NCBI GenBank assembly: GCA_013178005.1
Contig: JABLXL010000009.1
Coordinates: 1-64,000, forward strand
Direction: 5' to 3'
DNA from: Actinomycetota bacterium
GTDB lineage: Bacteria > Actinomycetota > Geothermincolia > Geothermincolales > RBG-13-55-18
Length of the DNA stretch: 64,000 nucleotides
Shown here in pieces: positions 53,050-54,875 of the stretch. The position numbers and the translations under genes are program-made. The notes under the pieces were generated by a model that ran no database searches, was not told the DNA's origin, and saw only the letters and a list, made by a program, of their open reading frames with translations. Position 1 is the stretch's first letter, and every line of letters starts with the position of its first letter.

Positions 53050-53427
53050 ATGGCGGAGAGGTTGGAGATCTACAAGTGCGAGATATGCGGGAACATCGTG
53101 GAGGTGCTCCACGGGGGCAAGGGGACCCTGGTCTGCTGCGGAGAGGACATGATCCGGCAGGTGGAGAACACCGTGGACGCCGCGGTGGAAAAGCACGTTC
53201 CCGTGGCGGAGGTCCTCGACGACGGGGTGCTGGTGAAGGTAGGAGAGGTGGCCCATCCCATGCAGGACGACCATTACATCGAGTGGGTGCAGATCCTCGT
53301 CGAGGACAAATCCTACCGCATCTTCCTGAAGCCAGGCATCGCGCCCGAGGGCAAGTTCAGCGTGCCCAAGGAGGGTATCACGGCACGCGAGTACTGCAAC
53401 CTCCACGGACTCTGGAAGTCAAGCTAG
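53050..53427 (+). CDS. dfx: Desulfoferrodoxin (superoxide reductase)
   Basis: The 125-residue protein has both iron centres of class I superoxide reductases: the desulforedoxin site (YKCEICGNIVEV, then VCCGEDM) and the catalytic site (EKHVPV, VAHPM with the next His, and YCNLHGLW), where Fe is bound by four His and one Cys. It reduces superoxide to peroxide without making oxygen. GGAGGTAAGG lies before the ATG. It follows rubrerythrin and converges on the peroxiredoxin gene. Confidence 0.97.
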   Translation: MAERLEIYKCEICGNIVEVLHGGKGTLVCCGEDMIRQVENTVDAAVEKHVPVAEVLDDGVLVKVGEVAHPMQDDHYIEWVQILVEDKSYRIFLKPGIAPEGKFSVPKEGITAREYCNLHGLWKSS

Positions 53428-53584: not shown

Positions 53585-54310
53585 TTAGAAAGCGTTGTCC
53601 ACCTTCCATACCTTCCATACCTTTCCAGCCAGGTCCGGCCCGGGCTTGAGGGTCGGCCTTCCGGGCTGCCAGCCGGAAGGCATGACCTCGCCGGTCTTGG
53701 CCACGTGCTGGAAGGCCTTGACCTGCCTGATCAGCTCGGCGACGTTGCGCCCCACCGGTGGGGTCATGACCTCCATGGCCTGAATGACCCCGTCAGGGTC
53801 GATGAGGAAGCGGCCGCGGATATTCACGCCCGCGTCCTCGTCATAGACGCCATACGCGCGCCCTATGCGTCCTCCGGCGTCGGTGAGCATGGGGAAGGGC
53901 ACGCCTCCCTTCACCATCTTGGAGAGCTCCTCCTCCTGCCATATCTTGTGCGTGAACCTGCTGTCCACGCTCATGGAGAGGACCTCCACGCCCAGCTTCT
54001 TCAGCTCCTTGTACTTTTCGGCGACCGCCGAAAGCTCGGTCGGTCATACGAAGGTGAAGTCCCCGGGATAGAAGCAAAGCACCACCCACTTCCCCCTGTA
54101 ATCCGACAGCTTGACGTTCTTGAACCCGCCATTCAAGTAGGCGCTGGCTTCGAAATCGGGAGCGGGTTTTCCCACCTGGGCGATCACCGTCCCACCTCCT
54201 CCCTCCGCTGGGGTCTCGCTCTCTTTCGCCGCCGCGGCCTTGGGCGCTGCGATGATGCCCCTGGCCGGCTTGACGCACAGGTCTTTCGCTTCCGCCCTTG
54301 GAGCCGCCAT
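53585..54310 (-). CDS. Selenocysteine peroxiredoxin (AhpC/Prx1 type, UGA at the peroxidatic position)
   Basis: The ATG at 54308-54310 has GAGGAGG upstream. Reading TGA 54044-54046 as selenocysteine gives 241 residues. Residues 84-92 are FTFV-U-PTEL, exactly the peroxidatic motif FTFVCPTE of the AhpC family with Sec89 for Cys. Sequence on both sides is unbroken family sequence ([30 protein letters not shown]), so a stop by chance is unlikely. The usual resolving Cys in GEVCP is Met here (GEVMPSGW), so the enzyme is probably 1-Cys type. An unusual Ala/Pro-rich N-terminal extension of about 40 residues carries Cys12. It should reduce peroxides in the cytoplasm, next to rbr, dfx and trxB. Confidence 0.9.
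54022..54042 (-). promoter_or_regulatory. Candidate SECIS hairpin after the UGA codon
   Basis: Directly after the UGA (one base apart) CGACCG (54042-54037) pairs with CGGTCG (54027-54022) around a nine-base loop. Bacterial SECIS elements lie in this position. An alternative fold pairs CCGA with TCGG. The fold has not been tested against SelB requirements. Confidence 0.4.
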
Positions 54311-54402: not shown

Positions 54403-54684
54403 CTAGCCCTTCAGCTCCTCGACCTCTTCCTTGCCCTCCTCCAGCTCCTTGGCCTGCTCCTGGTCTTCCATGAGCAGGAGGGCCTGGAACTCGCCCACGT
54501 GGGTCTTCTCCTCCCTGGCGATGTCCAGGAGCACGTCCTTGATGAGCTTGTTGTCGGTCATGGCCGCGAGCTGCTCGTATAGGTTCACCGCGTCCAGCTC
54601 GGCGATCATGCCCACGCGGCAGATCTCCCGGTCCAGCTCCTTCTGGCTCATCCTGGACAGGTCCTTCGGGATCTCCGAAAGCAT
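54403..54684 (-). CDS. Encapsulin-cargo-like ferritin-like protein (FLP)
   Basis: The 93-residue protein starts at an ATG with AAGGAGGT upstream. It has a short N-terminal part ([17 protein letters not shown]) and two helices with the diiron ligands [12 protein letters not shown] and [15 protein letters not shown], ending [14 protein letters not shown]. The same order of motifs forms the ferritin-like domain fused to the Pyrococcus furiosus encapsulin and the FLP cargo of Thermotoga. Here it is a separate protein, and no shell gene follows; a peroxiredoxin gene does, 92 bases on. It may store iron or remove peroxide as a multimer. Confidence 0.82.
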
Positions 54685-54823
54685 ACTCGACCTCCTTTTC
54701 CTTGCGCGCCAACCGCCTTCCGGCGCCGTGGCGCCCGCTTAACTCAACCTATCGAAGGTAGCCCTGTTTCCCCGATAGACCCATTGTTCCCAAGTTCGCA
54801 ACCGAAATAACGCCGGAGCATGA

Positions 54824-54858
54824 TTGACAATTATGGTATTATAGTACCAGAATATTGT
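54824..54858 (+). promoter_or_regulatory. Promoter and dyad operator of the Rrf2 gene
   Basis: A -35 TTGACA (54824-54829) begins a dyad: ACAAT (54827-54831), TGGTA (54834-54838), six bases, TACCA (54845-54849), ATTGT (54854-54858). Its AT-rich symmetric form, 20 bases before the start, suits autorepression by the Rrf2 protein. No ideal -10 is seen. Confidence 0.55.
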
Positions 54859-54875
54859 TATAAAAGGGAGGCGGC

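What the first reader, a model, noticed from the sequence alone, without database searches (positions are those of the whole stretch)
54403..54684. Encapsulin-type ferritin-like protein without an encapsulin
The 93-residue protein has the motif order of the ferritin-like domain that is fused to or packed in encapsulin shells (ELDAxNLYEQ, REEKxHVGEF, ending ELKG), but the adjacent genes code for the selenoperoxiredoxin and an Rrf2 regulator, not a shell. It may be a shell-free form, or the shell may lie elsewhere.
Basis: partly seen in the sequence, partly recalled or inferred. Interest (0 to 1): 0.5.

Follow-up and report, generated by a model that had tools for sequence, protein, structure and literature searches.

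The report
Shell-free relative of encapsulated ferritin
A small protein of the iron-oxidising kind that is usually locked inside a protein shell is made here without any shell we could find, as in relatives from many other microbes, and it lies beside genes that defend against oxygen damage.

Summary
Confirmed and extended. ORF 54403-54684(-) encodes a 93-aa EncFtn-type ferritin-like protein (FLP). Its best PDB match is the Pyrococcus furiosus EncFtn domain (E 1.5e-22), and its AF2 model has the EncFtn fold. The mapped ferroxidase ligands (E29, E59, H62) are conserved. The host genome (97% complete) has no family-1 encapsulin match (PF04454), and the protein ends at helix 3 without a targeting peptide.

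It belongs to a clade (99/97 support) of stand-alone 91-104-aa proteins from many bacterial and archaeal phyla. Shells are absent from 79 of 79 genomes holding the 80 best relatives, from 32 of 32 in the window's phylum sample, and from 40 of 41 in an archaeal phylum sample, where the same search recovered 45 of 45 shell-fused FLPs (sets overlap).

Superoxide reductase (SOR) genes lie within 1.5 kb of 22 of 127 unique loci; in the 80 relatives, 20 SOR matches lie within 2 kb and 1 at 2-10 kb.

Best reading: a shell-free di-iron ferroxidase/peroxide scavenger working with SOR, peroxiredoxin and rubrerythrin; the catalysis is inferred. EncFtn relatives lacking encapsulin were noted in print (2016, 2024), so this is a new variant of a known kind.

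The parts
54403..54684 (-). EncFtn-type ferritin-like protein, 93 aa, no targeting peptide, not fused to a shell
   Evidence: ORF; PDB 5n5e E 1.5e-22; PF22277 27.2 bits, cut-off 27.0; AF2 pLDDT 93.2; Foldseek 5n5e TMq 0.84
53585..54310 (-). Sec-containing peroxiredoxin PrxU, 92 bp downstream of the FLP on the same strand (probable operon, inferred)
   Evidence: NF040737 390.1 bits, cut-off 270; one in-frame TGA, U89; AhpC-TSA 140 bits
54876..55328 (+). Rrf2-family regulator, divergent from the FLP
   Evidence: PF02082 95.2 bits; TIGR00738 82.3 bits, cut-off 73.3
54685..54875 (.). Divergent intergenic region between FLP and Rrf2 genes; presumed site of promoters and operator (inferred)
   Evidence: sequence read; upstream regions compared by eye
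53050..53427 (+). Desulfoferrodoxin / superoxide reductase, convergent with the PrxU gene
   Evidence: TIGR00320 178.7 bits, cut-off 146.9; PF01880
52489..52992 (+). Rubrerythrin with rubredoxin-like domain, upstream of the superoxide reductase gene
   Evidence: PF02915 84.6 bits and PF21349 45.5 bits
55300..56070 (+). Ferredoxin-domain protein (256 aa) overlapping the end of the Rrf2 gene; possible electron carrier (inferred)
   Evidence: Fer4 45 bits

Best explanation
A free-standing EncFtn-type ferritin-like protein that works in the cytosol without an encapsulin shell. Shown: the sequence, predicted fold and mapped ferroxidase ligands of EncFtn; no targeting peptide; no family-1 shell match in this genome and in nearly all examined genomes with close relatives; clustering with superoxide reductase (SOR), peroxiredoxin and other oxidative-defence genes in part of the loci. 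Inferred: two subunits join face to face to make a di-iron site, pairs build a ring (a decamer in solved EncFtns), and the site oxidises Fe2+ with O2 or H2O2, removing both Fenton reactants when the cell meets air. SOR turns superoxide into H2O2; PrxU, rubrerythrin and this protein remove the H2O2. The ferric iron probably passes to the cell's canonical ferritin rather than to a shell.
For: Best PDB match and fold are EncFtn. Mapped ligands E29, E59, H62 are kept in 127, 127 and 126 of 127 proteins. No PF04454 in the own genome, in 79 of 79 genomes of the 80 best relatives, in 32 of 32 high-scoring genomes of the phylum sample and in 40 of 41 of the archaeal sample; positive control 45 of 45 fusions. 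No targeting-peptide pattern in 0 of 127, whereas the FLPs beside a shell in 7 phylum genomes all end in T[VI]G[SD]L tails. One clade, 99/97. SOR within 1.5 kb in 22 of 127 loci and some tested oxidative-defence gene in 36 of 127; SOR 20 times within 2 kb against once at 2-10 kb in the 80 relatives. Own genome has a canonical ferritin.
Against: No activity or oligomer was tested. 91 of 127 loci have none of the tested defence genes within 1.5 kb (98 of 127 had full flanks). SOR is also more frequent in the FLP-positive genomes of the phylum sample as such (25 of 32 against 82 of 364), so shared anaerobic life may explain part of the link. One archaeal genome of 41 (G741) does hold PF04454 shells at other places. 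Absence of shells in the phylum sample alone is weak (Fisher p 0.06). One relative (L031) has Tyr for His62. Isolated R. rubrum EncFtn aggregates when loaded with iron (PMC5012862, passages), so a shell-free form needs a sink for ferric iron.
Confidence: 0.55

Rival explanations
1. A half-size rubrerythrin-like peroxidase: the di-iron site reduces H2O2 with electrons from rubredoxin, ferredoxin or the neighbouring ferredoxin-domain protein, and does not handle free iron.
For: Oxidative-defence neighbours; PF02915 26.0 bits against 22.8; sulerythrin and rubrerythrins follow the EncFtns among di-iron folds (Z 8.8 and below); the own genome already has a canonical ferritin.
Against: Sequence and fold are closest to EncFtn; no rubredoxin domain in the 93 aa; a full rubrerythrin lies 1.4 kb away in the window.
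Confidence: 0.2
2. An iron carrier: it binds Fe2+/Fe3+ and hands it to ferritin, SOR or other iron enzymes, with oxidation only incidental.
For: Ferritin is among the recurrent neighbours within 6 kb (9 of 80 loci); short intergenic distances to SOR in archaea (12 SOR frames within 200 bp downstream on the same strand).
Against: The mapped di-iron ligand set is kept almost without exception, which speaks for catalysis; most loci lack a ferritin neighbour.
Confidence: 0.12
3. The protein sits in a compartment that PF04454 does not detect (a family-2 encapsulin or a ferritin cage).
For: The family-2 search was uninformative, since its controls were silent.
Against: No targeting peptide; PF04454 detected 45 of 45 fused shells down to 37.9 bits.
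Confidence: 0.05
4. Ordinary encapsulin cargo whose shell gene lies elsewhere in the genome or in the missing 3%.
For: The assembly is a 98-contig draft, 97% complete.
Against: No PF04454 in the own genome, in the two same-genus genomes or in the other family members of the phylum sample; no targeting peptide.
Confidence: 0.03
5. A decaying leftover of an FLP-shell fusion that lost its shell.
For: The protein ends where the P. furiosus protein runs on towards the shell (alignment).
Against: 62-96% identity across the 80 listed relatives, 22 invariant columns, one supported clade over both domains, intact frame and start.
Confidence: 0.03

Closest known systems
Pyrococcus furiosus EncFtn domain, fusion-FLP (PFC_05175; PDB 5n5e, 2e0z)
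   Same: Nearest solved relative by sequence and fold; gap-free alignment to the last residue; same mapped ligands and an Ala at the R. rubrum Glu31 position
   Different: There the domain is fused to the shell; here it is a separate 93-aa protein and no shell gene was found
'Non-EncFtn' group (PMC5012862, passages) and s-FLP class such as NE0167, PDB 3k6c (PMC11202242, section 5 read)
   Same: EncFtn relatives without a targeting peptide; reported without the encapsulin sequence, or as formerly classed non-encapsulated
   Different: Sequence match to 3k6c is marginal (E 0.14); whether the 2016 group holds this clade was not tested (its list was not seen)
FLP with targeting peptide: R. rubrum EncFtn (5da5), M. 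xanthus EncB/EncC (7s5c, 7s8t), H. ochraceum (5n5f)
   Same: Same fold and mapped ferroxidase ligands
   Different: They carry a targeting tail and are cargo of a shell (PMC11202242); here no tail and no shell
Rubrerythrin / sulerythrin
   Same: Di-iron ferritin-like superfamily; oxidative-defence context
   Different: Longer single chain forming the whole bundle, often with a rubredoxin domain (recalled); here a 93-aa hairpin with one ExxH

Membership tests
EncFtn-like superfamily (Pfam PF22277) | Score over the Pfam gathering cut-off | tested here: met
   27.2 bits against 27.0, i.e. barely
EncFtn-like superfamily (Pfam PF22277) | Two long antiparallel helices plus a short C-terminal helix | tested here: met
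   AF2 model, helices 14-42, 46-73, 75-92; 5n5e first in Foldseek, TMq 0.84, Z 11.8
EncFtn-like superfamily (Pfam PF22277) | Ferroxidase ligands (R. rubrum E32, E62, H65) | tested here: met
   E29, E59, H62 by the offset of +3 in the printed 5n5e alignment and equal-length spans for R. rubrum; kept in 127, 127, 126 of 127
EncFtn-like superfamily (Pfam PF22277) | Iron-dependent decamer with the di-iron site between subunits | not testable with these tools
   only a monomer was predicted
Encapsulin cargo FLP (NCBIfam NF058679, TIGR04535) | Score over NCBI's cut-offs | tested here: not met
   70.3 against 90 and 53 against 125 bits
Encapsulin cargo FLP (NCBIfam NF058679, TIGR04535) | C-terminal targeting peptide or fusion to the shell | tested here: not met
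   protein ends at ELKG after helix 3; pattern absent in 127 of 127
Encapsulin cargo FLP (NCBIfam NF058679, TIGR04535) | Family-1 shell gene in the genome | tested here: not met
   0 matches of PF04454 in G000
Encapsulin cargo FLP (NCBIfam NF058679, TIGR04535) | Any other shell (family 2) in the genome | tested here: inconclusive
   PF19307: no match, but no control genome rang either
Rubrerythrin | Score over the Pfam gathering cut-off of PF02915 | tested here: met
   26.0 bits against 22.8, over residues 24-87 only and profile 5-71 of 137
Rubrerythrin | Whole four-helix bundle with both ligand motifs in one chain | tested here: not met
   93 aa, one ExxH, three-helix hairpin model
Short FLP (s-FLP, NE0167 type) | No long tail or apparent targeting peptide | tested here: met
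Short FLP (s-FLP, NE0167 type) | Clear sequence kinship with NE0167 | tested here: inconclusive
   phmmer E 0.14; fold Z 11.1; not placed in the tree

The most novel reading that the evidence does not exclude
EncFtn-type ferritins form a large, mostly overlooked shell-free branch across bacteria and archaea (many phyla, DPANN and Patescibacteria included). There they act as naked ring-shaped ferroxidase/peroxidase modules beside superoxide reductase, and this free state may be the one from which shell fusion and cargo targeting later arose.
Probability: 0.35. Interest if true: 0.65.

Novelty: new variant of a known kind. Interest (0 to 1): 0.45.

Why it matters
EncFtn proteins are described as oxidising iron for storage inside a shell (PMC11202242, section 5). 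A well-supported clade that is almost never found with a shell, but lies beside superoxide reductase and peroxiredoxin genes in part of its loci, separates the ferroxidase chemistry from compartment storage. It makes the function of a naked EncFtn testable with small proteins. It also bears on whether the shell association is ancestral or acquired, and it warns against annotating such genes as encapsulin cargo.

Tried and rejected
Shell elsewhere in the genome: searched and rejected for family 1; family 2 inconclusive. Decaying remnant: rejected by conservation. Rubrerythrin membership: rejected on architecture, kept as a functional rival.

Residues separating free from fused proteins (E37, L53, Q67, L71 and others) were considered as signs of a new interface. 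This was dropped because the P. furiosus fusion protein shares E37, L53 and L71 in the alignment, so they mark the archaeal fusions of the sample rather than freedom from the shell.

Horizontal transfer: phylum and domain labels are scattered on the tree, but 97 columns cannot resolve it, so no claim is made. An Rrf2 operator was looked for by eye upstream of the FLP in 18 loci; only a recurring GGGAATAAT-like string was seen and not tested. ESCRT-III rows, one of which (9ftl, Z 9.1) scores above sulerythrin, are taken as chance likeness of long helices (rmsd about 10).

Literature: searches listed no paper on a shell-free EncFtn beside superoxide reductase (open-licence papers only; listings seen). 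Of two papers more was seen: passages of PMC5012862; outline, abstract, passages and sections 5 and 10 of PMC11202242. The listing was mostly unrelated papers. A 2019 Biochemical Journal paper on archaeal EncFtn (DOI recalled) is not held.

Rows dropped before counts: in the phylum sample, 57 genomes matched; 32 at 139 bits or more, 18 with a best hit of 39-69 bits, and 7 with only hits under 37 bits (G097, G201, G180, G352, G081, G318, G210), which were left out; none of the 7 has a shell. In the archaeal sample 112 genomes matched; 41, 45 and 21 were counted, and broken or weak hits in G667, G536, G516, G480 and G608 were left out; of these five G667 has a weak shell match (26.7 bits). The 111-bit border was set after seeing that the best fused protein scores 109.6 bits; there is no gap in scores at that place. 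Only fetched loci entered the tree and the neighbour counts: the 8 archaeal genomes at 111-139.5 bits and some others beyond the 30-locus limit were not placed. Rows over 85% identical to a kept row were left out of the tree. In one search self-hits of the rubrerythrin query were not filtered in the fused class, so its 5 of 28 is an upper bound. In one search other recurrent clusters (an antisense-frame cluster in 44 loci, FtsH-like and ABC-transporter-like proteins, named by my reading) were not pursued.

Full report
The ORF. Window 54403-54684 on the minus strand is a 93-codon ORF with an ATG start and GGAGG upstream. The best PDB matches by sequence are the EncFtn domain of P. furiosus (5n5e, E 1.5e-22, 82.7 bits) and the P. 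furiosus shell protein that carries this domain (2e0z, 1.9e-21). M. xanthus EncC follows at 1.4e-7; R. rubrum EncFtn, H. ochraceum EncFtn and N. europaea NE0167 are marginal (E about 0.1-0.5). The printed match to 5n5e runs without gaps to the last residue of the window protein, i.e. the window protein stops where the P. furiosus chain runs on towards the shell. Pfam EncFtn-like passes by 0.2 bit and Rubrerythrin by 3.2 bits. The NCBI encapsulin-associated models are missed by a wide margin (70.3 against 90, 53 against 125).

Fold and active site. An AF2 model from a 40-row alignment has mean pLDDT 93.2, with helices 14-42, 46-73 and 75-92. Foldseek ranks 5n5e first (TMq 0.84, E 9.2e-7; only two chains have E at or below 0.001), then other EncFtns. 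VIA-align gives Z 11.8 (2.1 A, 89 residues) for 5n5e, 11.1 for 3k6c and 5da5, and 8.8 for sulerythrin. That tool warns that helical bundles can reach such Z values by mere arrangement, so the sequence match carries the weight. With the +3 offset of the 5n5e alignment, and equal-length spans for R. rubrum (alignment not printed), the R. rubrum ligands E32, E62 and H65 (numbers as in the PDB titles) fall on E29, E59 and H62. They are kept in 127, 127 and 126 of 127 stand-alone proteins; Y36 is in all 127. The position of R. rubrum Glu31 is Ala28 in all 127 and in 28 of 28 fused archaeal proteins.

No shell found. The Pfam shell model PF04454 finds nothing in the window's genome (3.6 Mb, 98 contigs, 97% complete, 2.5% contamination). 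The FLP is single-copy at E up to 10. A family-2 model (PF19307) also finds nothing, but none of its controls rang, so this says little. The genome has one clear canonical ferritin on another contig (133.5 bits).

A clade without shells. All 80 are stand-alone, 91-104 aa; so are 127 of 127 unique proteins after adding further genomes. Record titles name Actinomycetota, Nitrospirota, Chloroflexota, Patescibacteria, Thermodesulfobacteriota, methanogen and ANME lineages, Bathyarchaeota, Asgard and DPANN archaea; most are drafts from metagenomes. Their 79 genomes give no PF04454 match (0 of 50 and 0 of 29). In 396 genomes of the window's phylum the FLP profile hits 57: 32 genomes at 139-160 bits, and nothing between 139 and 69 bits. 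None of the 32 has a shell, against 37 shells in the 396 (Fisher p 0.06, weak alone). Of 18 genomes with a best FLP hit at 39-69 bits, 7 have a shell, each within 500 bp of an FLP hit. The FLPs next to those 7 shells end in T[VI]G[SD]L tails, like the targeting peptides described in PMC11202242; the FLPs of the other 11 genomes lack that tail, though one (L226) ends in ETGSL. One shell genome (G442) has a second FLP without the tail (L229).

Archaeal comparison. In 300 genomes of the phylum of G032 (a Bathyarchaeota genome; Thermoproteota by recall), 41 carry an FLP of 111 bits or more, all unfused (open frames 93-171 aa). 45 carry an FLP in one frame with a shell (349 aa or more; at most 109.6 bits), and 21 carry an unfused FLP at 77-105 bits. 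PF04454 detects the shell in 45 of 45 fusions, in 1 of 41 of the first group (G741, shells far from its FLP) and in 0 of 21 of the last (Fisher p 0.004 for 1 of 41 against 51 of 259). So the shell search is sensitive there, and unfused FLPs go with absence of a shell. These sets overlap with the 79 genomes (for example G028, G032, G061, G065, G068), so the counts must not be added up.

Tree. In a 145-row tree on 97 columns, all 89 high-scoring stand-alone rows form one side of a branch (99/97; a single change in 99% of 200 bootstrap trees). The 22 fused and 17 intermediate stand-alone archaeal rows are interleaved. The root is not inferred, the bootstrap had not settled, and 68 of 142 inner forks are open. 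The tree therefore cannot say whether free or fused came first, nor show transfer between phyla.

Neighbourhood. In the window the order is rubrerythrin(+), desulfoferrodoxin/SOR(+), then PrxU(-), FLP(-), then Rrf2(+) and a ferredoxin-domain protein(+). In the 80 relatives, within 6 kb where the contig allows, recurrent clusters include SOR (21 loci), peroxiredoxin (17), rubrerythrin (10), A-type flavoprotein-like (10), ferritin (9), thioredoxin-reductase-like (9), Fe/Mn SOD (4) and catalase (4) (one representative of each checked in Pfam). Of 127 unique loci, the window included, 22 have SOR, 17 peroxiredoxin and 36 at least one tested oxidative-defence gene within 1.5 kb; 91 have none. Of the 22 with SOR, 9 belong to the window's own lineage and 13 to others. 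Comparison groups gave 0 of 25 (actinobacterial low-scoring or shell loci), 4 of 20 (intermediate archaeal) and at most 5 of 28 (fused). As an internal control in the 80 loci, SOR occurs 20 times in 293 kb within 2 kb of the FLP and once in 763 kb at 2-10 kb (binomial p about 1e-10; related loci are not independent). SOR neighbours occur in Actinomycetota, Patescibacteria, Methanobacteriota, Thermoplasmatota, Helarchaeota, Nanobdellota, Woesearchaeota and two unnamed archaeal genomes. In the phylum sample 25 of 32 genomes with the high-scoring FLP and 82 of the other 364 have SOR, which shared anaerobic life alone could explain.

Mechanism. Shown: identity, mapped ligands, predicted fold, lack of a targeting peptide, no detectable family-1 shell, and the genomic company. 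Inferred from EncFtn biochemistry (PMC5012862, passages; PMC11202242, section 5): pairing of subunits creates the di-iron site and rings assemble with iron. Isolated R. rubrum EncFtn aggregates when iron is added, whereas the complex with its shell shows ferroxidase activity without precipitates (PMC5012862, passages). A shell-free form thus fits detoxification rather than bulk storage: consume Fe2+ and H2O2 or O2 together, next to SOR, which makes H2O2, and pass ferric iron on, perhaps to the canonical ferritin. The acceptor and the true oxidant are unknown.

Known or new. PMC5012862 (passages) already reports a 'Non-EncFtn' group lacking the encapsulin sequence, and PMC11202242 (section 5) a class without targeting peptide, once called non-encapsulated. 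The searches (open-licence papers only) listed no description of this clade or of its link with superoxide reductase. I therefore file it as an EncFtn-like superfamily member, not as encapsulin cargo, and as a new variant of a known kind.

Noticed in passing
   Followed up: no
L003, L004, L005, L007, L083, L092 and others, upstream of the FLP start: A GGGAATAAT-like string recurs some 50-130 bp upstream of the FLP start in loci of the window's lineage (GGGAACAAT in the window); it may be a promoter element or operator (by eye, no test against chance).
   Followed up: no
G741:C1:786229-787026 and 1360571-1361368: The only genome of 41 with a high-scoring free FLP that also has PF04454 matches: two of equal score (115.6 bits) far from the FLP at 2083845.
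   Followed up: no
L202-L221 (archaeal intermediate-scoring FLPs): A second set of unfused FLPs, 93-105 aa, interleaved on the tree with shell-fused ones and without PF04454 in their genomes (0 of 21 genomes), hinting at repeated gain or loss of the shell.
   Followed up: partly
L031:5253-5531: A relative in a bin named Candidatus Nitrosotalea has Tyr in place of the otherwise invariant His62 ligand.
   Followed up: no
L229 (G442:C1:782559-782792): A second FLP without a targeting tail in a genome that has a shell with a tailed FLP beside it.
   Followed up: no
window 53585-54310: In at least 7 related loci a peroxiredoxin frame downstream of the FLP breaks off at the same ...DFTFV place as in the window, as expected for a conserved Sec codon; the peroxiredoxin Sec codon was not studied further.
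   Followed up: no
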